DNA of 19,117 nt from JAMORN01 sp027063545 [NCBI: bacterium] (GTDB lineage Bacteria; JAMORN01). Numbering within the stretch: the first letter of the stretch is position 1; each line of letters starts with the position of its first letter. Below are positions 1 through 18,860 of the stretch, one piece after another. A program made the position numbers and the translations under genes. Below the pieces are notes generated by a model that ran no database searches, was not told where the DNA came from, and saw only the letters and a list, made by a program, of their open reading frames with translations. Where the stretch lies: NCBI GenBank assembly GCA_027063545.1, contig JAMORN010000267.1, positions 1 to 19,117 on the forward strand, read 5' to 3'.

Positions 1-428
1 GCTCCCATTCTATCCATTTTATTAACAAAAGCAATACGAGGAACTCTATACTTATCAGCCTGACGCCAAACAGTTTCACTTTGAGATTCTACTCCTCCTA
101 CAGCTTCAAAAATCACCACAGCACCATCTAAAACCCTCAATGATCTTTCTACCTCTGCCGTAAAATCTACGTGACCTGGAGTATCTATAATATTTATTAT
201 ATGTTCTTTCCATTGACATTGTACAGCCGCTGAAGTAATTGTAATACCTCTTTCCTTTTCTTGTTCCATCCAGTCTGTAGTGGCTGCCCCATCATGAACT
301 TCACCAATCTTATGAATAAGACCTGTATAATACAAAATTCTTTCTGTAGTTGTTGTTTTACCAGCATCAATATGAGCAATAATACCAATATTTCTAATTT
401 TTTCCAAATTATATTTATACTCAGCCAT
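1..428 (-). CDS. fusA: Elongation factor G, N-terminal part (cut by window edge)
   Basis: Translational GTPase that drives ribosomal translocation. Only the first 142 codons are present; the gene continues beyond base 1. The start is the ATG at 426-428, preceded by AAGGAG; another ATG four bases upstream is out of frame. The visible G domain has the P-loop [10 protein letters not shown] (residues 19-28), the switch I segment with [11 protein letters not shown], the G3 motif DTPGHVDF and the G4 motif NKMD near the cut end. It lies 17 bases after rpsG in the classic str operon order rpsL-rpsG-fusA and is probably co-transcribed from the promoter at 1345-1373. Codon use is ordinary for this genome: Ile is mostly ATT (13 ATT to 3 ATA by hand count), unlike tuf. 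Confidence 0.97.
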
Positions 429-1394: not shown

Positions 1395-4300
1395 TTAAAA
1401 ATCATTGAAGTTTTCTTCCTCTCCTCCAAAACTACCTATTTCTTCCTCTACGTCAGTCTGTTCAATCTCATCAACTAACTTGATATTTTTATATCTCTTA
1501 TTTCCTGTACCTGCAGGAATTAATCTACCTATAATTACATTCTCTTTTAATCCTCTAAGTTCATCTACTTTTCCTGATATTGCAGCATTTGTTAATACTC
1601 TTGATGTCTCTTGGAATGATGCTGCAGAAATAAATGACTCTGTCATAAGTGCTGTTTTTGTTATTCCTAATAACACGGGTTCATATTCTGCAGGTCTTTT
1701 ACCTTCAGCTAATACTTTTTTATTCTCTTCCAATACAATATGTCTATCAACAAAATCACCTTCTAAGAATTGTGTATCATTTGATTTTGTAATTCTAACT
1801 TTTTTCATCATTTGGCGGATAATACACTCTATATGTTTATCATTAATACTAACACCTTGTATTCTATAAACATCCTGAATTTCATTCAATAAGAACTCTT
1901 GTACAGCATTTATACCTTTAATTTTTAAAATATCATGTGGAGATACAGGACCTTCACACAATTTTTCTCCAGCCTTTACCTTATGTCCATCATATACTAA
2001 AATATGTCTACCTGCTGGTATAAAATACTCATGAACATTTCCTTCTTCATCTACTATTTCTATTTTTCTTTGTCTTCTTACAATTTCTTTTATATGTACT
2101 ATTCCATCAACTTCTGCAATTATAGCTTTATTTTCGCTTTCTTTAGCTTCAAATAATTCTGCAACCCTTGGAAGACCACCAGTAATATCTGTAGTCTTAC
2201 CTGATTCTCTAGGAAGCTTAGCTAAAATATCTCCAGGATAAACTTCTTGACCATCTTTCACAGCTAATCTTGCCCCTACAGGTAATGAATAGGTTTTTAT
2301 TACTTCTCCATCCTCATCCACTATTTCTATATATGGGAATCTATCTTTATATTCTATAATTACCCATTCTTCTATGTTAGTTGTCTCATCTTTTTCTACC
2401 TGATATGTATCATTTTCTATTAAGTTTTTAAATACAACTTTTCCTTTAACATCTGTAATTATTGGAATATTATATGGGTCCCATTCATATAATTTTTGTC
2501 CTTCTTTTACTTTTTGTCCATCTTCAACAAAAAGAATAGCACCCATTGGTAATTCGATTTTTGTTTTTTCTAAATTAGTATTTTCGTCAATAATTGAAAG
2601 TTCTCCATTTCTATTTAATACTATTTTCTTACCATCTTTATTCTGTACTATTTCTATATTTTCAAGTTTTACTATACCATCTGTTTTACTAGAAATTTCT
2701 CTTTCTGCAGCAATACGCGCAGCAGTACCTCCCACGTGGAATGTTCTAAGAGTAAGCTGTGTTCCAGGCTCACCAATAGATTGAGCTGCAATAACTCCAA
2801 CAGCATCTCCTATTTCAGCTAATTTTCCTGTTCCTGGGAAGATACCATAACACTTTTGACAAATCCCGTATTTAGATTCACAAGTCAACACACTTCTTAC
2901 CATCACACTTTCAATACCTGCTTCTTCTATCTTCTTTGCCTTTTCTTTAGTTATTAATTCTCCAGAAGCAACAATAACCTCTCCTGTTATTGGATGATAA
3001 ATATCTTTTAAAACAAATCTACCTTCTATTCTTTCAGATAAAGGTACAACTATTTCATCACCTTGTTTTATTACTGATACCTTTATTCCTCTTATAGTTC
3101 CACAATCATGCTCTGTAACAATTAAATCTTGAGCCACATCAACTAATCTTCTCGTTAAATATCCAGCATCTGCTGTTTTTAAAGCTGTATCAGCCAATCC
3201 TTTTCTAGCTCCATGAGTTGAAATAAAATATTCAAGAACATTTAATCCTTCTTTAAAGTTTGAAATAATAGGATTTTCAACGATAGCCTCTTCTGTTAAT
3301 TTTTTCTTAGGCTTTGCCATCAATCCTCTCATACCAGCAAGCTGTCTTATCTGTTCTTTACTACCTCTAGCACCAGAGTGAGCCATCATCCATAAAGGAT
3401 TAAATCCATCTCTTGATTTTTCTAAGTGTTTCATCAAATGCTCTGTAATTCTATTAGTTGTATGTGTCCATATATCTATAATTCTAGAATAACGTTCTCT
3501 TTCTGTCATAAATCCCATTTCATAACTTTCTTTAATTTCTTCTACTTCTTTTAGTGATTCTTCTATTAACTTTTGCTTTTCTTCGGGAACTTCTATATCA
3601 TCTATTCCTAATGAAATTCCACTTCTAGTTGCCCATTCAAACCCTAAATCTTTCAAGTCATCTAAGAATTTAATATATCTTGTATGAGATTCCTTACTAT
3701 AAACCTCATATACTAAAGCTGTTAATTTTTTCTTTGTCATTTCATCATTAATAAAATCAATGCTCTCTGGCACAATAGAATTAAATACTAATCTTCCATA
3801 TGTAGTTTCTATTACTTTATCTCTAACTTTTACAAAAATCTTAGCATGTAATGAAATTATACCATTTTCATAGGCAAAAGTAGCCTCTTCAAATGAAGAA
3901 AATTTCTTTCCCTCTCCTTTAGCCTTTTCTTTCACTTTTGTTAAATAATAAGAACCTAAAACTGTATCCTGAGAAGGTACAGCCAATGGTCTTCCACTAG
4001 CAGGAGAAAGTGTATTGTTACTTGATAGCATAATTATTCTTGCTTCAAACTGAGCCTCAAAAGATAGAGGTACATGAATAGCCATTTGGTCCCCATCAAA
4101 ATCTGCATTAAACGCTGAACAGACAAATGGAGAAAGTCTTATTGCTAAATCATCTGTTAATTTTACATAAAAAGCCTGAATACTTACTCTGTGAAGTGTT
4201 GGTGCACGATTGAGTAAAATTGGATGATCCTCTAATATCTCTTCCAATATTTCCCAAATTTCTTCAGATTCTTCAGCTATCATTCTTTTAGCAACTCTAA

Positions 4301-5483
4301 TACTTTGAGAATATCCTTTTTCTTCTAATTTTGCAATAACAAAAGGCTTAAATAATTCAAGAGCCATTACCTTAGGAACACCTGCTTCAAAAATCTTAAG
4401 TTCTGGCCCTACTACAATTACAGAACGTCCAGAATAATCAACTCTTTTACCCAAAAGATTCTGACGAAATCTTCCCTTTTTACCTTTTAACATTTCAGAT
4501 AAAGATTTTAAAGGCCTTCTATTTTCCCCTTTATAAACAAATTTTCTCTTACCATTATCTATTAATGCGTCAACTGCTTCTTGAAGCATTCTCTTTTCAT
4601 TTCTCAAAATTATATCAGGAGCATCTATCTCTATTAATTTCTTTAATCTATTATTTCTATTTATAACTCTTCTATATAAATCATTCAAATCACTAGAAGC
4701 AAATCTACCACCTTCAAGAGGAACTAATGGTCTAAGCTCTGGTGGTAATACTGGTAATACTTCATATACCATCCATTCTGGTCTATTACCTGAATGTCTT
4801 AATCTATCAATGACTTTTAATCTTTTTAAAAGAACTTGCCTTTTTTGTTCAGATTGCTCTAATTCTATTTTTGTTTTTAAATCAATTACTTCCTTTTCCA
4901 GCTCAATTTCTTGAAGAAGTTTTTTTATAGCCTCTCCACCCATTAAAGCTTCAAATTCATATCCTTGTTCTCTTAATTCTTCATACTCTTCTTCTGTTAA
5001 AAGTTGAAGCCTTTTCAAAGGTGCATTCCCAGGATCAGTCACTATATATGCTTCATAATAAATTACCTGTTCCAATGCCTTAGATGTAATATTTAAAAGA
5101 GTTGCTATAATTGAAGGAGTATTTGTATAAAACCATATATGAACAACAGGTATTGCTAACTCAATATGCCCCATTCTTTCTCTTCTAACTCTATGAGTTG
5201 TTACCTCAACACCACATTTATCACATATTATTCCTTTATATCTTATTCTTTTATATTTTCCACAAGCACATTCATAATCTTTTACAGGTCCAAATATTCT
5301 TTCACAAAATAATCCATCAAATTCTGGTTTATAAGTCTTATAATTTATAGTTTCTGGTTTTTTAACTTCACCATAAGACCACTTTCTAATTACTTCTGGT
5401 GAGGCTAATTTTATATATATTTTAGAAAATTCATCTGTTTTGTCTTTATTTGAAAATGGCTCAAATAATAATTTTATAGACAC
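1395..5483 (-). CDS. rpoC: DNA-directed RNA polymerase subunit beta' (GTG start)
   Basis: Largest catalytic subunit of RNA polymerase, 1362 aa. The N-terminal zinc site is C72-x-C74 and C87-x2-C90. The catalytic loop is [10 protein letters not shown] (459-468), with Mg-binding Asp 461, 463 and 465. The second zinc cluster (CGTIRG, then [11 protein letters not shown]) and the bridge-helix/trigger-loop region ([23 protein letters not shown]) follow. Between FHVGGTA and [15 protein letters not shown] there is a long insertion with repeated G-x-x-V-K/Y-x-G-x-x-L sandwich-barrel motifs. It aligns by eye with the E. coli SI3 insertion, a marker of Gram-negative lineages. The start is GTG with GGAGG six bases upstream. 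It lies 36 bases after rpoB and is co-transcribed with it. Confidence 0.98.
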
Positions 5484-5519
5484 CTTTAGCCTCCATTTTT
5501 TTTATTTTAGAAAATTTAA

Positions 5520-8500
5520 TTATTCTGCATATATGTTAATACCTATAGCTCTAATTTCACTTATTAATACTTTAAATGATTCTGGAATACCAAACTTAGG
5601 TAAGTTTTGACCTTTAACAATCGCTTCATAAACTTTTGTTCTACCTACAACATCATCAGATTTTACAGTTAATAATTCTTGTAATGTATATGCAGCTCCA
5701 TATGCCTCAAGAGCCCAAACTTCCATTTCTCCAAATCTTTGACCACCAAATTGACTCTTACCACCTAATGGCTGTTGTGTAATTAAAGAATATGGTCCTA
5801 TAGAACGAGCATGTATCTTATCTGTTACTAAGTGATTTAATTTCATTATATACATTATACCTACAGTAACTTTATTATCAAAATATTCACCTGTCCTACC
5901 ATCTCTTAATCTTACCTTACCATCTTCTGGAAGCCCTGCCTTCTTTAATTCTTCTTTAATAGTTTCTATAGAAGGTCCATTAAAAACTGGAACTTTTACA
6001 TAATATCCTTGCTTATAAGCAGCCCAACCAAGATGTGTTTCTAATAATTGCCCAATATTCATACGAGAAGGAATTCCTAAAGGATTTAAAAGTACATCAA
6101 TTGGAGTTCCATCATCCATAAATGGCATATCAGCAATACTAGCAATTTTTGATACAACACCTTTATTTCCATGACGTCCCGCTAATTTATCACCTACAGC
6201 CAATTTTTTCTTTGTTGCTATATAAACTTTTACCAATTGAATTACGTCTGCCCGTAATTCATCACCTCTCATTTCCTTTTCAATTTCAATATTAAGTCTT
6301 GTTTCCAATTCTTGAATTAACTTTTTACTAGTCTCTATTACCTCTCTTATTTTAACATTAGTATCTTTATCATCTACTAATTCTTCACTTATATCTATTC
6401 TATCAAATGGTATTGACTCAATTACATCTTTAGTGAGTTTTGTGCCTTCTTTAATTAAAGGACGTTTGGTGTAAGAATCTACTATATTTTTACTTAATTT
6501 TCCTTCCATTAATTTTATTAAAGCTTCTATAGTCTTTTCTAAGACTCTTCTAATCTTAGATTCATATTCTTCTTTGATTTTATTTATTTTTTCCTTCTCT
6601 TGTTGTCTTGCACTCTTTGTTTCTTTCTTCCTAGAAAGAATCTTAGTATCTATTACAATACCTTTTACTCCAGGATCAACTCTTAAAGAAGTATCTTTTA
6701 CATCACTAGCTTTTTCTCCAAATATTGCCTTCAATAACTTCTCTTCTGGAGATAATTGTGTTTCTCCTTTAGGAGTAATCTTTCCTACTAAAATATCTCC
6801 AGGTTTTACCCTAGCACCTATTCTTATTATACCATTTTCATCTAAGTTTTTTACTAACTCCTCTGAGTAATTCGGAATTTCTCTAGTTATTTCTTCAGGA
6901 CCTCTATTTGTGTCTCTTACTTCCACTTCATATTCTTCAATATGAATAGATGTTAATACATCATCATGTAAAATTCTTTCAGATACTATAATAGCATCCT
7001 CAAAATTAAATCCCTGCCAACTCATAAAAGCAATAAACATGTTTCTACCAAGAGCAAGCTCACCTCTATCAGTTGCCATTCCATCAGCAATAACATCACC
7101 TGCCTTAACAATATCACCTTCTCTAACTAACGGACGTTGATTTATTGTTGTATTTTGATTTGATCTTTCAAATTTTCTTAGTACATATATATCTTCCTCA
7201 AATAAGTCTAATATATTATCATTAGAATCATCAGGTTTTATTATAATTTTTTCTGCATCAACATAAACAACTTTTCCTCCTCTTTTAGCTGTTACAACAG
7301 CTTTTATGTCAATAGAAGGCTTCTTTTCTCTTCCTGTACCTACAATAGGTGCCTCAGGTCTTAATAAAGGAACCGCTTGTCTTTGCATGTTTGAACCCAT
7401 TAAAGCACGGTTAGCATCATCATGTTCTAAAAATGGAATTAATGATGCAGACACACCCACTAACTGATTAGTACTTACATCCATTAATTGGACATCTTTA
7501 GCTGAAACTAAAATTATTTCCCCCTTTTGTCTTGCAATAATATTTGAATCAATAATATTACCCTCATCATCAACATTTATATCAGCAGGTGCTATAATAT
7601 ATTCTTCTTCCTCATCTGCTGTTAAATATACTATCTCATCTGTAATTTTACCATCTACAACCTTTCTATATGGAGTAATTAAAAAACCATACTCATTTAG
7701 TCTAGCATAATTTGCTAAGGATACAATAAGTCCAATATTAGGACCTTCTGGCGTTTCTACCGGACATATTCTTCCATAGTGAGTATAATGAACGTCTCTT
7801 ACCTCAAATCCTGCCCTTTCTCTATCAAGTCCTCCAGGTCCTAAAGAAGATAATCTCCTTTTATTAGTTAACTCTGCTAATGGATTGGTTTGATCCATAA
7901 ATTGAGATAACTGAGATGTTTGAAAGAAACTCATTATAACAGTATAAACAGATCTAGCATTAACTAAATCATTAACATTTGTTATATCTTTTGTTGTTTT
8001 TAATTTTTCTCTTATTTGTCTAACTAAACGATTTAACGCATCAGCAAATCTAAGTTCTAATAATTCTCCTACAGGTCTTACCCTTCTATTTGCTAAATGA
8101 TCTATATCATCTAACTCTTCATCATTATCATAGTAATACATTAATTTCTTTACTATTTCAACAATATCATCAACTGTTAATACATTCGAATCTATCTTTT
8201 TCCCTTCAAGACCTTCTGGATTACCATATAGTTTCATATTTAACCTATATCTTCCAATCTCGCCTAAATAATATGTCCTTTCTGAAAAGAAAATTCTATT
8301 CATCATTTCTCTTGCAGCATTTTCACTCGGTAACTCACCTGTTCTTATTAAATTATATATAGTCTTCAAAGCATCTAAATAATCATTACACTTGTCTCCT
8401 ACAATTGTTTTATATACTAAATTTGTAGATTCTCTAGGATTTATATCCCAAACTTCTATCTCTTCTATACCTTTTTCTTTTAGATCTTCAAGTAAAGTCT

Positions 8501-9296
8501 CTGTAATAACCTCGTACTTTTCAGCTATAACTTCATCAGTTCTAGAATCTATAACCTCTTCTGCTAACACTTTACCAATTATATCTATAGGTTTATCGTC
8601 ATTTATATTAATAGTCTTTTTATTCAGGAAAAGTTCCATTAATTCTTCATTAGTAGAATATCCTAAAGGTCTCAATAATATTGTAACAGGAATTTTCTTA
8701 TTTTTACCTAAATTAATATAAATTCCTGTAGAATCTATATAGAATTCAATCCAAGAACCTCTATAGGGAATTATTCTTGCTGAAATTACTCTCCTTCCAT
8801 TCTGGATATCTTCAGAAAAGAATATACCAGCACTTCTATGAAGCTGTGATACTATTACTCTTTCATTTCCATTTATTATAAAAGAACCACTTTCTGTCAT
8901 TAAAGGGATATCACCTAAGTATACTTCATTTGTTATCTTTTCTGCAAATTTTCTCTCCCCTGTTTTTTTATTAGTCTTATATTTTAAAAGAGAAAATTTT
9001 ATCTTTAAAGGTGCACCATAAGTTAACCCTCTATCTTTACATTCTTTTATACTGTATTTTGGTATCCCAATATTATACCCCTCATATTCTAAAATATATT
9101 CTCCATTATCTCCATCATCTATTGGAAAATTTTCTCTAAAAACAGCTTCTAATCCTTTATTTTCTCTTTTTTCAGGAGGAACATCTGGTTGAAGAAAATC
9201 TCTATATGATTTTAATTGAATTTCTAATAAATTTTCTACATCAAATTCAAATTCTTTTTTCCCTAAAAATTTTCTTTCTATTGTTTTCCCTTCCAA
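5520..9296 (-). CDS. rpoB: DNA-directed RNA polymerase subunit beta (TTG start)
   Basis: Second-largest RNA polymerase subunit, 1258 aa (E. coli 1342). It shows the protrusion/lobe domains, the rifampicin-pocket block [20 protein letters not shown] with SLGPGGL following (461-490), the NFEDAI block, and [14 protein letters not shown] near the active site. The C-terminal clamp carries [25 protein letters not shown]. Between TKILSRKK and the [12 protein letters not shown] block is an SI2-like, charge-rich, coiled-coil insertion. Residue 478 is Asn (AAT at 7863-7865) where E. coli has His526. The start is TTG, placed by AAGGAG seven bases upstream. That Shine-Dalgarno could pair with an upstream CTCC. 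It follows rplL after 139 bases that hold a hairpin. Confidence 0.98.
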   Translation of the reverse strand: [1258 protein letters not shown]

Positions 9297-9435: not shown

Positions 9436-9819
9436 TTACTTAATTTCTACCTTAGCCCCTACAGCTTCTAATTTAGCTTTAATTTCTTCAGCTTCTTCTT
9501 TCTTTAATCCTTCTTTTAACACTTTAGGAGCACTTTCTACAACTTCTTTAGCTTCCTTTAACCCCAATCCTGTTATCTCTCTTACAACTTTTATAACTTT
9601 AACCTTTTCAGATCCTGCAGATACTAATTCAACAGAAAACTCTGTTTTTTCTTCTTGAGCACCAGCATCAGCACCTGCTGTACCTGGGACAGCAGCAACA
9701 GCTACTGGAGCTGCAGCACTAACTCCAAATTCTTCTTCTAAAGCTTTAACTAATTCACTTAATTCTAAAACTGTTAATCCTTTGATTTCCTCAATGATTC
9801 CTTGAATCTTGTCGCTCAT
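9436..9819 (-). CDS. rplL: 50S ribosomal protein L7/L12
   Basis: Acidic, multicopy stalk protein of the 50S subunit that recruits and activates the translational GTPases EF-Tu and EF-G. It has 127 aa, standard length. Three parts are visible: an N-terminal dimerisation helix region (about 1-33) that binds L10, an Ala/Gly/Val-rich flexible hinge (about 34-54), and the C-terminal factor-binding domain with [25 protein letters not shown]. The ATG start has GGAGG upstream. It lies 34 bases after rplJ, its binding partner. The following gap carries the hairpin that probably uncouples its high expression from rpoBC. Confidence 0.98.
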
Positions 9820-9853
9820 CTTTATCTCCTCCCATTATATGTTATTTTTTATG

Positions 9854-10378
9854 TTAACCTTCTTTTGATTTTTTCTCTTCAATTGCTTTAATTACACCAA
9901 CTAAATTTCTTAATAAACCTGACAATACAAATACAAGTCCAGAAATAGGTGCTTGAACACCACCAACAACCCTTGCCAGTAACTCTTCTCTTGTTGGCAA
10001 TTTAGAAATAGCCTCTATATCTTTATCAACATAAACCTTTCCTTGATAGTAAACAGCTTTAAATTTAGGTAAACCATTATGTTCTTTACTAAAATTATTT
10101 ACAGCTTTTACTACATGAACTAAATCTTCTCCAACAACTAGAGCAGTATCCTCTTTAAGATAATCTTCTAAGCCTTCTATCTTCAAAGATTCAAAAGCTT
10201 TATTTAATATAGTATTTTTAACTACTTTAAATGTAATACCTTCCTTTTTTAAAATTCTTCTTAATTTATTATCATCCTGAGCCTTCAATCCTTTAAAAGA
10301 TACTAATACTATTATTTCATTATTTTCTAACAAATCTTTTACCATATTTAACATTTCTATATTTCTCTGACTAGCCAT
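9854..10378 (-). CDS. rplJ: 50S ribosomal protein L10
   Basis: Base of the L7/L12 stalk: it binds 23S rRNA and, through its C-terminal helix, several L7/L12 dimers. It has 174 aa, in the family range (E. coli 165). Typical features are the N-terminal segment ending in VVKNTILNKAF and the AP-x-SGLVFVLSGLLRNLVGVIKAIEEKK helix at the C-terminus that carries L12. The ATG start has GGGGTG upstream. It lies only 24 bases after rplA. The long L10 leader structure that mediates autorepression in E. coli and Bacillus therefore does not fit here, and regulation must lie elsewhere. Confidence 0.98.
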   Translation of the reverse strand: MASQRNIEMLNMVKDLLENNEIIVLVSFKGLKAQDDNKLRRILKKEGITFKVVKNTILNKAFESLKIEGLEDYLKEDTALVVGEDLVHVVKAVNNFSKEHNGLPKFKAVYYQGKVYVDKDIEAISKLPTREELLARVVGGVQAPISGLVFVLSGLLRNLVGVIKAIEEKKSKEG

Positions 10379-10402
10379 CTTTACACCCCTAATTTTATTT
10401 TA

Positions 10403-11092
10403 TTACTGTAGAGATTTTGGGTTTATCTTTAATCCTGGACCCATTGTACTAGATAAGTATACTCCTTTTATATAAGTCCCCTTTGAAGTAGCAGGTTTAG
10501 CCTTTAAAACAGCATTATAAAATGTCATAAAATTTTCTTTTAAAGCTTCTTTATCAAATGATCTTTTTCCTATTATTCCGTGAAGATTTCCTGTTTTATC
10601 TACCTTAAAATTTACTTTTCCCTTCTTTATATCCGCAATTACCTTCTTTAAATCATTAGTAACTGTACCTGTTTTAGGATTTGGCATCAAACCTCTTGGT
10701 CCCAATATTCTACCTAATTTTCCTATTGCAGACATCATATCTGGAGTAGCAACAACAGCATCAAAATCAAGCCATCCGCCTTGTATCTTAGCAATTAAAT
10801 CATCTGCTCCCACATAATCAGCTCCAGCTTCTCTAGCCTCATCTGCTTTCTCACCTTTTGCAAAAACCAATATTTTCATTTTCTTTCCTGTTCCATGAGG
10901 AAGAGTAACACTACCTCTTACCATTTGATCTGATTTTCTTGGATCTACCCCTAATCTAAAAACTACATCTACGGTCTCATCAAAATTAGCCGCAGGATTT
11001 TCTTTAATAAAATCTATAGCCTCATCAACAGTATACATTTTATTTGGATCAATCTTTTCTTTTATTTTAAGATACCTTTTTCCTCTCTTCAT
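10403..11092 (-). CDS. rplA: 50S ribosomal protein L1
   Basis: Forms the mobile L1 stalk of the 50S subunit, which guides deacylated tRNA out of the E site, and acts as a translational repressor of rplK-rplA in many bacteria. It has 229 aa, the usual length. Diagnostic segments are [30 protein letters not shown] (domain I) and [19 protein letters not shown] (domain II/hinge), both conserved. The ATG start has AGAGGTAG upstream. It is located 19 bases after rplK, in one operon. Lys codons are mostly AAA in its first third, which serves as a comparison for the different codon choice in tuf. Confidence 0.98.
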
Positions 11093-11111
11093 AGTTATCT
11101 ACCTCTCTATT

Positions 11112-11546
11112 TTATTTTTCATCATCTATTACAACAACACCCATATTCTTAGCAGTACCTTCCATCATTCTTATAGTAGCTTCTATATCATCTGTATTCA
11201 TATCAACAATTTTCTTTTCAGCTAATTTTCTAAGTTGAGACCTTTTAATCTCACCTACTTTTTCTTTATTTGGTTTTCCAGAACCTTTTTCAATACCTAA
11301 TTCTTTCTTTATCATATCAGCAGAAGACATTTGTTTTAATTCAAATGTAAAAGAACGATCTGAATATACTGTAATAATTACAGGTACTATTTCACCTTTT
11401 CTATCTTGTGTCGCTGCATTAAATGCCTTACAAAATTCCATAATATTAATACCACGCTGACCTAATGCCGGACCTACAGGTGGAGCTGGTGTAGCATTCC
11501 CACCAGGAATTCTTAATCTTAACTTACCTACTTCTTCCTTTGCCAC
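11112..11546 (-). CDS. rplK: 50S ribosomal protein L11 (GTG start)
   Basis: Binds the GTPase-associated centre of 23S rRNA, assists EF-G and release factors, and is needed for RelA activation where RelA exists. It has 144 aa (E. coli 142). The N-terminal domain has [28 protein letters not shown] with the conserved proline-rich start; the C-terminal rRNA-binding domain ends in [11 protein letters not shown]. The start is GTG, with AAGGAG seven bases upstream (GTG-GCA-AAG). It follows nusG after 19 bases, too short to hold the separate L1-binding leader known from E. coli. Confidence 0.98.
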
Positions 11547-11565
11547 TTTTACTCTCCTTTTTTAT

Positions 11566-12096
11566 TTAAGACATAGGAATAACATCTTTAAATTCAACTT
11601 CTATAGGTGTTTCCCTACCTAAAACAGTAATCATTACTTCTAATTTTCCTTTTTCATAATCTATATTATTAATTTTACCCATAAAATCTTTAAATGGTCC
11701 ATTAACAATCTTAACTGTTCCACCTTCCTCAAAATCAGATTCAAAACTCACATTATCCGGTCTCCTAATGATTTTTTGGACCTCTTTTTCACTCATCGGT
11801 TTAGGACCACGTCTATCACCAACAAATTTTACAACTCCCTCAATATTGGATATTTCATACATTAAATTTTCATCATAAACCATTTTTATAAAAACATAAC
11901 TTGGTAAAACCTTTTTCTTTTTCTCCCTTATTTTTCCTCTTTCATGAACCCTAACTATATCTATTGGAACTTCTACAGATTCAATATAATCTTGTAAATT
12001 TCTTGTTTCTATCAATGTCTCTATAGCTTCTTTAACATCATCTTCCCTACCAGAAAGTGTCTGAATAGCATACCACTTTTTTATTAATTCCGCCAT
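11566..12096 (-). CDS. nusG: Transcription termination/antitermination factor NusG
   Basis: Binds RNA polymerase, modulates pausing and links transcription to Rho or to the ribosome. It has 176 aa, typical of the short form without an extra inserted domain. An N-terminal NGN domain starts at KKWYAIQTLSGREDDVKEAIE and contains the PSYVFIKM stretch. A C-terminal KOW domain shows FEEGGTVKIVNGPFKDFMGKI. The ATG start has AGGGAAG upstream. It is 12 bases after secE and 19 before rplK, in the standard secE-nusG-rplK order. Confidence 0.98.
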   Translation of the reverse strand: MAELIKKWYAIQTLSGREDDVKEAIETLIETRNLQDYIESVEVPIDIVRVHERGKIREKKKKVLPSYVFIKMVYDENLMYEISNIEGVVKFVGDRRGPKPMSEKEVQKIIRRPDNVSFESDFEEGGTVKIVNGPFKDFMGKINNIDYEKGKLEVMITVLGRETPIEVEFKDVIPMS

Positions 12097-12303: not shown

Positions 12304-12353
12304 ACCCAACCCTATTTAAATACTTTTTAAATACTTATATAAGTTTCATTCTC

Positions 12354-12426
12354 CAGGCCCGGAGGGACTCGAACCCCCGATCTTCGGATTTGGAGTCCGA
12401 TGCTTTACCAACTAAGCTACGGGCCT
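12354..12426 (-). tRNA. trnW: tRNA-Trp (anticodon CCA)
   Basis: A 73-base cloverleaf on the minus strand. The acceptor stem AGGCCCG/CGGGCCT is fully paired and G73 is the usual tryptophan discriminator. The anticodon stem TCGGA/TCCGA encloses CTCCAAA, giving CCA. The T arm is GGGGG-TTCGAGT-CCCTC. The bases after G73 are GAG, so the 3' CCA is not encoded. It lies between rpmG and secE, a placement seen in many bacteria, and is probably excised from the tuf-rpmG-secE transcript. Confidence 0.97.
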
Positions 12427-12453
12427 GTAAAAATCAATCTATACACCTCTTTT

Positions 12454-12606
12454 CTATCTAGTTTCTTTATGAATTGTATGCTTATTACAATAAGGACAAT
12501 ATTTTTTATACTCTACCCTTTCTGGGTGCTTTCTTTTGTTCTTTGTTGTAGTATAATTTCTATGTTTACAAACTGTACATTCCAAAGTAATAATTTCCCT
12601 AGCCAT
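12454..12606 (-). CDS. rpmG: 50S ribosomal protein L33, zinc-binding form
   Basis: Small 50S protein near the E site. It has 50 aa: [20 protein letters not shown] at the start, ending in HTIHKETR. Two CxxC pairs, C10-x2-C13 and C37-x2-C40, make this the zinc-ribbon ('C+') form, with the [18 protein letters not shown] stretch typical of the family. The ATG start has GAGGA about nine bases upstream. It lies 27 bases after tuf and 27 before tRNA-Trp, in the usual tuf-rpmG-trnW-secE order. Its short length makes it easy to miss in automatic calls. Confidence 0.96.
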
Positions 12607-12633
12607 AGCATTCTATCCTCTTCTTTATTATAA

Positions 12634-13827
12634 TTATTCTATTATCTTTGTTACTACTCCAGCTCCTACTGTCTTCCCTCCCTCTCTTATAGCAAATCTT
12701 AAATTCTCTTCCATTGCTATCGGATATATTAACTCTATTGTCATCTTTACATTATCTCCTGGCATTACTACTTCTGTCCCCTCTGGTAATGATATTATTG
12801 TACCTGTCACGTCTGTTGTCCTAAAATAAAATTGTGGCCTATATCCTGCATGAAATGGCTTATGTCTTCCTCCCTCCTCTGGCTTCAACACATATACTTC
12901 TGCCTCAAATTTCTTATGGGGTGTTATTGTACCTGGCTGTGCTAATACCATTCCTCTCTTTACTTCTTTCTTCTCTATCCCTCTCAATAATACACCAACA
13001 TTATCTCCTGCTATCCCCTCATCTAACTCCTTCCTAAACATCTCTACTCCTGTAACTACTGTCTTCTTTGTCTCTCCTAAACCTACTATCTCTACTTCAT
13101 CTCCTACCTTCACCTTCCCTCTCTCTATCCTTCCTGTCACTACTGTCCCTCTTCCTGTTATACTAAATACATCCTCTATCGGCATTAAAAATGGCTTATC
13201 TACATCTCTTACTGGCTCTGGTATATACTCATCTAATGCATTCAATAACTTCTCTATACTTGGTAACCCTATATCACTTGTATCTCCTTCCAATGCCTTC
13301 AATGCACTACCCTTTATTACAGGTACCTCTTCTCCTGGATACCCATGCTCACTCAATAAATCCCTTACTTCCATCTCTACTAACTCTAATAACTCTGGAT
13401 CATTCTCTTGATCTACCTTGTTTATATATACTACTATCGCTGGTACATTAACTTGCTTTGCTAATAACACGTGCTCTCTTGTCTGTGGCATCACTCCATC
13501 TGTCGCTGCAACCACCAATATAGCTCCATCCATCTGAGCCGCACCTGTAATCATGTTCTTTATATAATCTGCGTGTCCAGGACAATCTACGTGAGCATAA
13601 TGCCTCTTATCTGTCTCATACTCTACGTGTGCTGTGTTTATTGTAATACCTCTCGCTTTCTCCTCTGGTGCATTATCTATTTCCTCATAACTCTTTTGCT
13701 CCGCCTTACCCTTCTGTGCTAAATAATGTGTTATAGCAGCTGTCAATGTAGTCTTCCCATGATCTACGTGACCTATTGTCCCTACATTTATATGTGGCTT
13801 ATTCCTAACAAACTTTTCCTTTGCCAT
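12634..13827 (-). CDS. tuf: Elongation factor Tu
   Basis: GTPase that delivers aminoacyl-tRNA to the ribosome. It has 397 aa (E. coli 394). The motifs are GHVDHGKT (19-26), [14 protein letters not shown] (switch I, Thr62), DCPGH (81-85, catalytic His85), NKVD (136-139) and GSALKAL; domains 2 and 3 are complete to [10 protein letters not shown]. The ATG start is preceded by GAGGTGA. Codon choice differs sharply from all neighbours. In the first 149 codons I count 9 ATA/2 ATT for Ile, 11 AAG/1 AAA for Lys and 10 GAG/2 GAA for Glu, whereas fusA and rplA favour ATT, AAA and GAA. It follows four tRNA genes and is probably read from their promoter, as in the E. coli tufB operon. A second tuf copy may exist elsewhere. 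Confidence 0.99.
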
Positions 13828-13918
13828 CCCTTCACCTCTCTTTTTTCTCGTTTATTTTCTATTTTGACGATATTATTTTTATTTTTTTATAAACACATAA
13901 GAAATATAGCTATCTTTT

Positions 13919-13991
13919 AGCTCACGACCGGACTTGAACCGGCGACCCCGTCCTTACCAAGGACGTGCTCTACCTCCTGAGCTACGTGAGC
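13919..13991 (-). tRNA. tRNA-Thr (anticodon GGT)
   Basis: A 73-base cloverleaf with acceptor stem GCTCACG/CGTGAGC and discriminator T73. The anticodon stem CGTCC/GGACG encloses TTGGTAA, giving GGT. The T arm is GCCGG-TTCAAGT-CCGGT. CCA is not encoded. It is the last of the four tRNA genes and lies 91 bases before tuf, in the position of E. coli thrT. Confidence 0.96.
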
Positions 13992-14026
13992 TTTCAACAA
14001 ACACTTTTTTTCAACAAAAAAAAGCA

Positions 14027-14058
14027 AAATTGTAAATAAAAAAAATTACAAACAATTT
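14027..14058. repeat. AT-rich inverted repeat in the tRNA-Gly/tRNA-Thr spacer
   Basis: The spacer 13992-14109 (118 bases) is almost pure A/T with long A runs and holds no gene. Within it, AAATTGT (14027-14033) and ACAATTT (14052-14058) are inverted repeats. An alternative pair, TTGTAA (14030-14035) and TTACAA (14046-14051), overlaps them. It could be a tRNA-precursor processing structure or, on the minus strand, part of a weak promoter (TTGTTT...TACAAT, spacing only 15). It has no GC stem like a normal terminator. Low information content; it may be chance. Confidence 0.3.
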
Positions 14059-14109
14059 ATTTAAAAGAACTTAATAACTTACCATACATATCTATTTATA
14101 AATAAAAAA

Positions 14110-14183
14110 AGCGGGTGATGGGACTCGAACCCACAACCCTCGCCTTGGAAGGGCGATGCTCTAGCCAATTGAGCTACACCCGC
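14110..14183 (-). tRNA. tRNA-Gly (anticodon TCC)
   Basis: A 74-base cloverleaf with acceptor stem GCGGGTG/CACCCGC and discriminator T73. The anticodon stem TCGCC/GGCGA encloses CTTCCAA, giving TCC. The T loop TTCGAGT is standard. CCA is not encoded. Third in the cluster, in the position of E. coli glyT. Confidence 0.97.
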
Positions 14184-14222
14184 TTACCTTAAACAATAAA
14201 ACTCCAAATTATATCTTAAATA

Positions 14223-14305
14223 TGGACGGGGGTGGATTCGAACCACCGTAGGCTTACGCCGGCAGGTTTACAGCCTGCTGCCTTTGACCGCTCGGCCACC
14301 CGTCC
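14223..14305 (-). tRNA. tRNA-Tyr (anticodon GTA)
   Basis: An 83-base class II tRNA with a long variable arm. The acceptor stem is GGACGGG/CCCGTCC with A73. The anticodon stem GCAGG/CCTGC encloses CTGTAAA, giving GTA. The variable arm CGGCGTAAGCCTA can form its own stem-loop, as expected for bacterial tRNA-Tyr. CCA is not encoded. Second in the cluster, as E. coli tyrU. Confidence 0.97.
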
Positions 14306-14320
14306 ATTTATATATATTTA

Positions 14321-14393
14321 AGCCACCAGAGGGATTTGAACCCCCGACCCGCGGTTTACAAGACCGCTGCTCTACCAACTGAGCTATGGTGGC
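14321..14393 (-). tRNA. tRNA-Thr (anticodon TGT)
   Basis: A 73-base cloverleaf with acceptor stem GCCACCA/TGGTGGC and discriminator T73, the same as the other Thr tRNA here. The anticodon stem GCGGT/ACCGC encloses CTTGTAA, giving TGT. CCA is not encoded. First gene of the cluster, as E. coli thrU. It reads ACA, the threonine codon that dominates in the downstream tuf gene. Confidence 0.97.
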
Positions 14394-14434
14394 TTATATT
14401 TCGTTTCTAAAGACCTCTATTTTATACGGCTTAT

Positions 14435-14494: not shown

Positions 14495-15118
14495 CTATAA
14501 AGTATCTAAGAAAAATCTAATAACTTTAATATCTCTTAACATTTTTTTATTTAAAGGTAGCATAAAGATAGGGTCTTTTATTTTTTTACTTATTAGAGAT
14601 TCTACATTTTTAGGAGTAATATCATGGATATCAATTTGTTCATAAATTAAAGCACCTAGTTTATAGTTTAATAAAGTTGAATATTTAAATATGGAATCTA
14701 TAGGAATATCCCGATTAAAAATATATAAAAAATTTACATTTAATCTTAAGTTTCTATTAGGGTACAGTATATCTACTTTTGTATAAATTTCATTCATATT
14801 ATCTTTAATTGTCCTTATATTAATAGATGTAGTTATATTTTCTATGTTATATTTAGAATGAAAATTAAAATCTTGAGCTAAAATCTCCCGTACTTTTGAA
14901 TCTGAAGTGTCTAACTTTTCTAATATTCTTTTATTTTCTGATAAAATTGAGTCTATATATAATGAATCACTCAAATTAATTTCTAATGAGTCTATATTAT
15001 TTTTCATATTGGGAGGATTTTTAACATAAGATATTAAATAAAATATAAGAAATATATTAATAATTAGTAAAACAACTAATATAATAATTATAGTTTTATG
15101 TTTTTTAAATTGAACCAT
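14495..15118 (-). CDS. Hypothetical membrane-anchored protein
   Basis: I do not recognise this 207-aa protein. It starts with a short basic stretch (MVQFKKHK), then one hydrophobic helix (about residues 9-30, IIIILVVLLIINIFLIFYLISYV). The remaining part of about 175 residues is hydrophilic, rich in Asn, Ile, Ser and Asp, with no Cys and few Gly. The layout suggests an N-terminally anchored protein with a periplasmic or extracytoplasmic domain; the helix lacks a clear signal-peptidase site. The ATG lies inside the end of the LOG-family gene (14-base overlap), suggesting translational coupling. It is the last gene of the trmI operon. It could be a lineage-specific envelope or assembly protein; no function can be assigned. 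Confidence 0.8.
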   Translation of the reverse strand: MVQFKKHKTIIIILVVLLIINIFLIFYLISYVKNPPNMKNNIDSLEINLSDSLYIDSILSENKRILEKLDTSDSKVREILAQDFNFHSKYNIENITTSINIRTIKDNMNEIYTKVDILYPNRNLRLNVNFLYIFNRDIPIDSIFKYSTLLNYKLGALIYEQIDIHDITPKNVESLISKKIKDPIFMLPLNKKMLRDIKVIRFFLDTL

Positions 15119-17990: not shown

Positions 17991-18773
17991 TTATCCTTTT
18001 TCTAATTTTCTTTTTGCAAAGATTAAATAAGCAGTATGAGCACTCATAATGTCCTCAGGTCTAAATCTTTCTGGAACAATTTTATAGTTTCTTACTAATA
18101 TCTCTTTTACCTCTATAGAATCAAAATAAATTCTTATATTTTTAAGTAAGTCTATTACCTGATTAGTGGTTGGAAGAAGAAAACAAACATTTGCAGAAGG
18201 TTTTAAAACATCAAAAAGCTCATTAAGTATAGGATTTGGTTCTCGTATATCAACAAAAGCCTTATCTATCTTTAAATCCTTAAACTCTTTTTGGAAGTTC
18301 TTTAAATTAAACTCCTGATTTAAAAGGGTAATATTATCATATATTTTAAACTTTTCAATATTCTTCTTTGCGTTTTTATAAAGTCGCTCTTCCTTTTCAA
18401 AGGATATTAGTTTTCCACTTTCCTTTAGAAGATAAGAAAAAACTAAACTAGCAGCCCCACTTCCTGTCCCAAACTCAAGCATTACATCATTTTCTAATAT
18501 ATTTAACTTACTAGCAATATAAAAACTATCCTTAGGATAGACTATTTGGGTCAAACGATTTATACCATACAGTATTATATCCTCTATTGTTGGCTTAAAT
18601 ATTGTTATCTCCCCTATTTTTATACCATAAGGCTTTCCTATTAAATCCTTATATTGAATATTTCCTTTTTTATAAGAAAAATTATGCTCAATATTTACCC
18701 TTTTTAAATACCTTTTATCATCATAATTTATTAATATCCAATCACCCTCTTTAATTAACTCCAAACCTTTCAT
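17991..18773 (-). CDS. trmI: tRNA (adenine(58)-N1)-methyltransferase TrmI
   Basis: SAM-dependent enzyme forming m1A58 in the tRNA T loop, a modification that stabilises tRNA at high temperature. From the chosen ATG it has 260 aa. An N-terminal beta domain has KEGDWILINYDDKRYL and the family segment KPTIEDIILYGINRLTQIVYPKD (60-82). The Rossmann domain has motif I EFGTGSG (100-106), SFEKEE (124-129, ribose-binding Glu) and motif IV VDIREPNP (174-181). The C-terminus RPEDIMSAHTAYLIFAKRK matches the family. Asp175 is kept, but the usual DLPDPW is replaced by DIREPN. An in-frame TTG at 18843-18845 would add 24 Lys/Asn/Phe-rich residues with no ribosome site; I reject it. The ATG's own site (GAGAGG, 12 bases upstream) is weak. 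First gene of its operon. Confidence 0.88.
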   Translation of the reverse strand: MKGLELIKEGDWILINYDDKRYLKRVNIEHNFSYKKGNIQYKDLIGKPYGIKIGEITIFKPTIEDIILYGINRLTQIVYPKDSFYIASKLNILENDVMLEFGTGSGAASLVFSYLLKESGKLISFEKEERLYKNAKKNIEKFKIYDNITLLNQEFNLKNFQKEFKDLKIDKAFVDIREPNPILNELFDVLKPSANVCFLLPTTNQVIDLLKNIRIYFDSIEVKEILVRNYKIVPERFRPEDIMSAHTAYLIFAKRKLEKG

Positions 18774-18860
18774 ATCATTAAAAAACCTCTCATTTTTATT
18801 TTTCCGTTTATCTTTTTTATTCAAAAATAATTTATTGTAAAACAAAAAATTAAATTTTAT

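What the first reader, a model, noticed from the sequence alone, without database searches (positions are those of the whole stretch)
12634..13827. tuf has codon usage unlike every neighbour, including other highly expressed genes
Hand counts over the first 149 codons of tuf give Ile 9 ATA/2 ATT/0 ATC, Lys 11 AAG/1 AAA and Glu 10 GAG/2 GAA, with ACA, GTA, CCA and AGT preferred. The same counts in fusA (142 codons: Ile 13 ATT/3 ATA) and the start of rplA (Lys 10 AAA/3 AAG) show the opposite preference. EF-G and ribosomal proteins are also highly expressed, so translational selection alone does not explain it. Possible explanations are import of the tuf coding sequence from an ATA/AAG/GAG-using (often thermophilic) lineage, gene conversion with a second tuf copy of different origin, or selection on the DNA or mRNA itself. 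The bias also leaves several long open frames on the opposite strand.
Basis: partly seen in the sequence, partly recalled or inferred. Interest (0 to 1): 0.65.

Follow-up and report, generated by a model that had tools for sequence, protein, structure and literature searches.

The report
EF-Tu gene with its own codons
The gene for the protein-synthesis factor EF-Tu spells its protein with codons unlike the other genes examined in this bacterium, and other bacteria from different families show the same kind of gene-specific spelling, which points to selection on this one gene rather than to a borrowed gene.

Summary
Import is not supported: of 157 tuf loci surveyed, ten (this genome and nine others) show the same tuf-only departure: purine-ended codons, AAG/GAG over AAA/GAA, AGT for serine. 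Each keeps its own genome's A:G balance (r 0.91 over 27 shifted loci), and the ten need ten changes on the EF-Tu tree. A second tuf copy exists, identical over the 116 visible bases. Expression level alone does not explain it: groEL is unshifted in 8 of the 9 type-2 genomes where it was found. Best reading: tuf-restricted synonymous selection for codons read by U34/C34 tRNAs; selection on the mRNA's bases is the main rival. The mechanism is inferred, not shown. Seven library searches listed no description of it.

The parts
12634..13827 (-). tuf (EF-Tu, 397 aa), the gene with deviant synonymous codon usage
   Evidence: TIGR00485 EF-Tu 722 bits, cut-off 522
12603..12718 (-). 116 bases (end of tuf, stop codon, spacer, ATGG of the next gene) identical to the end of a second tuf copy on contig C213, where rpsJ follows instead of rpmG
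   Evidence: the rest of copy 2 is not assembled, so 116 is a lower bound
13918..14394 (-). four tRNA genes ahead of tuf: Thr-TGT, Tyr-GTA, Gly-TCC, Thr-GGT
12454..12606 (-). rpmG-like ORF (50 aa) directly after tuf; name from the sequence, not from a search
12353..12427 (-). tRNA-Trp
9439..12096 (-). nusG, rplK, rplA, rplJ, rplL: neighbours without the tuf pattern (names from gene order and sequence)
1395..9296 (-). rpoB and rpoC, used as long comparison genes of ordinary usage

Best explanation
tuf is a native gene whose synonymous sites are under strong selection of their own. Shown: it favours purine-ended codons (A-ended in the four-fold boxes of this AT-rich genome, G-ended for Lys and Glu), and the same tuf-restricted shift is found in nine other surveyed genomes that do not group on the EF-Tu tree. 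Inferred: the favoured codons are those read by tRNAs with U34 or C34. NNG codons can be read by both where both genes exist, while pyrimidine-ended codons depend on the G34 tRNA (decoding rules recalled), so where each anticodon has about one gene, NNG and NNA are the better-supplied class. Inferred too: it shows in tuf because EF-Tu is usually the most abundant protein and itself carries the aminoacyl-tRNAs (recalled). The two tuf copies look recently converted or duplicated, so both would carry the pattern.
For: tuf is the sole extreme outlier of 296 own ORFs. Ten of 157 surveyed loci share the shift with ten changes on the tree. The G share of purine-ended four-fold codons in tuf follows each host's own (r 0.91 over 27 loci). 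The third base carries most of the signal (summed dAIC 2252 for third-base weights against 2330 for the best model tried, Ser left out). G-ended codons rise for Ala, Thr, Pro, Gly, Lys, Glu and Gln in most type-2 tufs. Arg moves to CGG or AGG, both C34 codons, rather than to the AGR family (123 of 243, background expectation 129). G350 and G021 carry C34 beside U34 genes in several boxes. In the own assembly the C34 genes found (Gly-CCC, Arg-CCU, Leu-CAG) include those of boxes where GGG and AGG rise, and none was found for Thr, Val, Pro or Ala, where A-ended codons dominate.
Against: Ser goes to AGT, read by a G34 tRNA, rather than TCR, and Leu goes to TTR beyond a third-base rule. Among two-fold pyrimidine boxes Phe, Cys and AGY shift to T in type 2 while Asp and His shift to C; the rule predicts neither. 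Ribosomal proteins and groEL do not lean the same way, except groEL of the L189 genome. In the own assembly AAG is 90% although only Lys-TTT was found (assembly 83% complete). tRNA supply was not measured, and identical tRNA copies were collapsed in my count.
Confidence: 0.4

Rival explanations
1. Selection acts on the bases of the tuf mRNA itself: G favoured, pyrimidines and C avoided, at more than the third position. Possible reasons are escape from Rho (which binds C-rich, G-poor RNA; recalled) or less pairing with itself and other RNAs.
For: Weights fitted on two-fold, four-fold and Ile third positions are G above A in all ten type-2 tufs and C below A in all ten. Leu TTR (374 of 566, background 213) and Ser AGY (120 of 197, background 62) rise also in the 21 loci chosen without regard to AGT. 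Adding pyrimidine steps to third-base weights gains 78 dAIC over ten type-2 tufs. Own tuf folds less than copies recoded to genome usage (z 4.5). Rho is present in 19 of 19 genomes tested.
Against: Arg does not move to AGR (259 of 476, background 270). In two-fold pyrimidine boxes C is not below background in 5 of 10 type-2 tufs. Against permutations of its own codons tuf is no less folded (z 0.4). Simple unpairing should favour A over G, yet AAG and GAG win. Own tuf has no less C than rpoB (10.8% against 9.8%). Sites fixed by amino acid show no purine gain (p 0.27). Rho presence does not discriminate.
Confidence: 0.28
2. The pattern is ordinary translational codon adaptation, stronger in tuf only because tuf is expressed more than anything else.
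For: Selection on tuf synonyms is measurable in Salmonella, 0.2-4.2e-4 per codon (PMC4786093, abstract). groEL of the L189 genome is part-shifted, purine share 0.71 against 0.49. Fifteen of 17 type-1 tufs also raise C-ended codons in two-fold boxes, as in ordinary adaptation.
Against: In type-2 genomes nusG, rplK, rplA, rplJ, rplL, rpoB and rpoC stay at a mean purine share of 0.43-0.48 against 0.80 for tuf, and most ribosomal proteins have a lower G share in two-fold purine boxes than rpoB. groEL is unshifted in 8 of 9.
Confidence: 0.15
3. The coding sequence was imported from a lineage, perhaps thermophilic, that uses ATA, AAG and GAG.
For: tuf usage differs strongly from the genome; the closest EF-Tu found (G044, 80%) is in another phylum by the tool's kinship label.
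Against: G044's tuf is itself a deviant in its own genome, so it is no donor of matching usage. The host's A:G balance is kept. Gene order is ordinary, and the labelled tufs do not group.
Confidence: 0.06
4. A mutational cause: transcription-linked mutation of the coding strand or GC-biased conversion between the two copies.
For: A second copy with a shared 116-base end exists; tuf GC is raised (0.398).
Against: GC-biased conversion should raise C with G: own tuf has TTC 0/9, TAC 0/12, ATC 0/30. Deamination of the coding strand should raise T: four-fold T is 0.15 in tuf against 0.50 in rpoB, and ATA replaces ATT.
Confidence: 0.06

Closest known systems
Codon adaptation of tuf in Salmonella (Brandis and Hughes 2016, PMC4786093; abstract and outline seen)
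   Same: Synonymous choice in tuf is under measurable selection.
   Different: There, by the abstract, tuf holds the optimal codons of highly expressed genes; here tuf departs from ribosomal proteins, rpoB, rpoC and, in 8 of 9 related cases, groEL.
Purine loading and mRNA avoidance (PMC5028192, two passages seen; Lao and Forsdyke 2000 only as cited there)
   Same: A purine-rich message with less folding than genome-like recodings.
   Different: Proposed there for mRNAs in general; here one gene, with G over A in the two-fold boxes.
Selective charging of tRNA isoacceptors (Elf et al. 2003; recalled, not read)
   Same: Genes may prefer codons of low-demand tRNAs that stay charged.
   Different: A plain rare-codon rule fails: AAG and CAG go from about 80% to 100% in several genomes.
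Concerted evolution of duplicate tuf genes (recalled)
   Same: Two copies with an identical stretch, one near rpoBC and one ahead of rpsJ.
   Different: It does not by itself predict a codon bias.

Membership tests
bacterial EF-Tu (TIGR00485) | whole-length match above the curated cut-off | tested here: met
   722 bits, cut-off 522, residues 1-397
horizontally acquired gene | usage matching a donor genome and a discordant tree position | tested here: inconclusive
   no donor of matching genome-wide usage seen; no phylum-mates held, so concordance with RpoB could not be judged
ordinary translational codon adaptation | same direction in ribosomal proteins and other abundant proteins | tested here: not met
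   ribosomal proteins, rpoB, rpoC and groEL not shifted, with the exceptions named in the report
ordinary translational codon adaptation | favoured codons match the tRNA supply | tested here: inconclusive
   C34 genes present in G350 and G021; own assembly incomplete, no Lys-CTT or Glu tRNA found
purine loading for unpaired mRNA | less folding than composition alone gives | tested here: not met
   z 0.4 against permutations of tuf's own codons, 60 of each kind
duplicate tuf pair under concerted evolution | second copy near-identical | tested here: inconclusive
   116 of 116 visible bases identical; the rest of copy 2 is not assembled

The most novel reading that the evidence does not exclude
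tuf is written in codons whose aminoacyl-tRNAs win when EF-Tu itself is scarce, so the gene's codon usage is a self-referential control: a shortage of EF-Tu spares translation of the EF-Tu message. This would explain why tuf, and not ribosomal proteins or most groEL genes, carries the pattern, and why it turns up again and again in separate lineages.
Probability: 0.1. Interest if true: 0.8.

Novelty: new variant of a known kind. Interest (0 to 1): 0.5.

Why it matters
Codon-adaptation indices commonly take EF-Tu and ribosomal proteins together as the reference for optimal codons (recalled). In these bacteria tuf and ribosomal proteins disagree, so such indices, growth-rate predictions from codon bias and composition screens for gene transfer could be misled. 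If the cause is found, tuf offers a recurrent natural test of what selects synonymous codons in one gene alone.

Tried and rejected
Antisense coding: the longest antisense frame in tuf (185 codons) is ordinary for synonym-permuted copies (median 175). Specific weak mRNA structure: actual folding does not differ from permutations of the same codons. Shine-Dalgarno-like content: coefficient near zero beside third-base weights. A plain rare-codon rule fails at Lys and Gln. A bias limited to one end of the gene: the purine share is even along the ten type-2 tufs (0.78, 0.80, 0.82, 0.80), although in the own tuf avoidable pyrimidines are commoner in codons 1-100. A screen for runs of purine-ended codons did not single out tuf (longest run 25 in another ORF, 20 in tuf). 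Phyla of G044 and G097: one other genome held in each, neither with a match at the threshold.

Limits of the counts. Of 193 loci examined, 157 were kept; 35 named loci had no qualifying tuf and one (L269) had too little background. The loci come from samples of 41 and 386 genomes ranked by EF-Tu likeness, from places I chose off a capped list, and from one named RpoB scan rich in Bacteroidota, so these are not population frequencies. The type-2 cut (purine share at least 0.2 above background and AGT at least 0.4) was set after seeing the own gene; Ser results in the type-2 set are therefore partly circular, and repeats them on a set chosen without AGT. Survey backgrounds are mechanical stop-to-stop ORFs plus RpoB matches, from 485 codons upward; the own locus had 626 codons there and was refitted with all sampled own ORFs. 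In one search the fusA5 rows are matches to tuf itself and are not used. In one search the longest ORF of L354 is not groEL and that row is not used; L361 is a partial groEL taken on its Pfam match; G076, G134, G098 and G031 have two groEL loci each.

Full report
What is there. The window is one contig (19,117 bases) of a fragmentary genome: 1.57 Mb, 355 contigs, 83% complete, with no phylum-mate among the relatives offered. On the minus strand it carries four tRNA genes, tuf, an rpmG-like ORF, tRNA-Trp, a secE-like ORF, nusG, rplK, rplA, rplJ, rplL, rpoB, rpoC, rpsL, rpsG and the first 142 codons of fusA (apart from tuf the names rest on sequence and gene order). tuf encodes a full-length EF-Tu.

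Over the gene ATA is 28 of 30 Ile, AAG 28 of 31 Lys, GAG 31 of 42 Glu, ACA 27 of 28 Thr, GTA 31 of 43 Val and AGT 6 of 7 Ser, while TTT, TAT and GAT stay as in the genome. In 324 kb of readable own sequence (about 21%; 27 further contigs read N) I called 296 ORFs of 100 codons or more. tuf scores z 32 against genome usage, the next 9.3; its purine share in four-fold boxes is 0.84 against a mean of 0.47 (s.d. 0.08) and a next value of 0.65. Both halves of the gene are affected, z 15 and 17. The unread four fifths of the genome could hold other such genes.

A second tuf copy exists. Contig C213 begins inside tuf and runs on into rpsJ-, rplC- and rplD-like ORFs. The 116 visible bases are identical to the window's copy through the stop codon, the spacer and the start codon of the next gene, although that gene differs. 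I read this as recent conversion or duplication. Assemblers cut contigs at repeats, so 116 is a lower bound. No visibly different second copy is seen; the rest of copy 2 is unassembled.

The same departure recurs elsewhere. I compared tuf with neighbouring genes and RpoB in 157 loci kept of 193 examined. In 27 the four-fold purine share of tuf is at least 0.2 above background. Ten of these also put at least 40% of Ser in AGT (type 2: this genome, G031, G076, G097, G044, L189, G021, G134, G098, G350); 17 do not (type 1), and 15 of those 17 raise C-ended codons in two-fold boxes. In type 2 C falls below background in those boxes in only 5 of 10. 118 loci are under 0.1, 43 of them named; the Bacteroidota among these have tufs leaning to T- and C-ended codons. 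One type-2 genome is named, an uncultured deltaproteobacterium (L189). Coding GC is no predictor: 0.28-0.68 in type 2, 0.32-0.67 in unnamed ordinary ones. The preferred purine follows the host: the G share of purine-ended four-fold codons in tuf tracks its own background (r 0.91 over the 27). This genome uses ACA; GC-richer ones use ACG.

It is close to confined to tuf. In type-2 genomes nusG, rplK, rplA, rplJ, rplL, rpoB and rpoC (4 to 8 genomes each) average a purine share of 0.43-0.48 against 0.80 for tuf. For rpsJ, rplC and rplD only one type-2 genome could be scored, with 0.71, 0.61 and 0.51; rpsJ there is not far from tuf. groEL was found in 9 of the 10 genomes, not in the own assembly. 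In 8 it is not shifted; in the L189 genome it is part-shifted, 0.71 against 0.49. That case suggests the pressure can reach other abundant proteins.

It is not one lineage's gene. On a 62-row EF-Tu tree the ten type-2 rows need ten changes (shuffled labels average 9.5), at least six by starred branches; the bootstrap had not settled. The closest EF-Tu, 80% identical in G044, has the same tuf-only shift in its own genome. Import from one ATA/AAG/GAG-using lineage is therefore unlikely. Separate imports cannot be excluded strictly, but each would need a donor matching the host's A:G balance. Within one family the strength varies: G076 +0.38, but G348 +0.18 and G218 +0.14.

What is selected. In the ten type-2 tufs the third base carries most of the signal. 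With Ser left out, summed dAIC is 2252 for third-base weights, 2330 with pyrimidine steps added, 2326 with YC steps, 2270 for base weights at all positions, and 2257 with Shine-Dalgarno likeness. Observed over expected at codon positions 2-3 is 3.7 for CG, 2.2 for GG and 1.7 for AG, against 0.24 for AA, 0.23 for CC, 0.28 for GC and 0.37 for TC, while AC stands at 1.10. In the 21 loci chosen without regard to AGT, Leu moves to TTR (374 of 566, background 213) and Ser to AGY (120 of 197, background 62), but Arg does not move to AGR (259 of 476, background 270). Neither a pure third-base rule nor a pure base-composition rule fits everything.

Mechanism. I favour selection for codons read by U34 and C34 tRNAs: where both exist NNG has two readers and NNC one (decoding rules recalled). 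G350 and G021 have C34 beside U34 genes in several boxes (36 distinct tRNAs read for 43 matches and 32 for 36; identical copies were collapsed, so copy number is only roughly known). In the own assembly the 24 tRNA genes found include Gly-CCC and Arg-CCU but no C34 tRNA for Thr, Val, Pro or Ala, in line with the rise of GGG and AGG and the A-ended choice in those four boxes. Lys and Glu do not fit unless their C34 genes lie in unassembled parts. Shown: the codon shift, its near-restriction to tuf, its recurrence. Inferred: that tRNA supply is the cause, and that EF-Tu's abundance or its role as tRNA carrier explains the restriction. The chief rival is selection on mRNA bases, for instance against Rho binding; Rho is present in 19 of 19 genomes tested, which does not discriminate, and the own tuf has no less C than rpoB. 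Mutation and GC-biased conversion fit badly because C-ended codons do not rise and T falls in the own tuf.

Print record. Seven full-text searches of the held library listed nothing whose title or shown abstract describes tuf-restricted purine- or G-ended codon usage; I opened only two papers, and the library lacks most subscription papers. Nearest are measured selection on tuf synonyms in Salmonella (PMC4786093, abstract) and mRNA avoidance with a mention of purine loading (PMC5028192, two passages).

Verdict. Observation confirmed; import not supported; a recurrent, tuf-centred codon usage of unsettled cause, most likely selective. Interest 0.5: the recurrence and the split between tuf and ribosomal proteins would surprise specialists, but it is a variant of codon bias and the mechanism is open.

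Noticed in passing
window 14495-15118 (-): 207-aa ORF with one apparent N-terminal membrane span and no NCBIfam match.
   Followed up: no
window 17991-18845 (-): Methyltransferase-like protein; the NCBIfam matches are weak and below their cut-offs. A tRNA methyltransferase is my guess only.
   Followed up: no
window 1-428: The contig ends inside fusA and C213 begins inside tuf copy 2, so the fusA-tuf junction is missing from the assembly.
   Followed up: partly
L353 (genome of L189): groEL of this genome is part-shifted like its tuf: purine share 0.71 against 0.49 in the background.
   Followed up: partly
L277 (G076) against L223 and L224 (G348, G218), one family: Close relatives differ in the strength of the tuf shift (+0.38 against +0.18 and +0.14; AGT 0.62 against 0.12 and 0), so it changes within a family.
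   Followed up: partly
type-1 loci of the survey, e.g. L007, L257, L275: Other tufs combine purine-ended four-fold codons with more C-ended two-fold codons; type 1 and type 2 may grade into each other (L275 is type 2 with raised C).
   Followed up: partly
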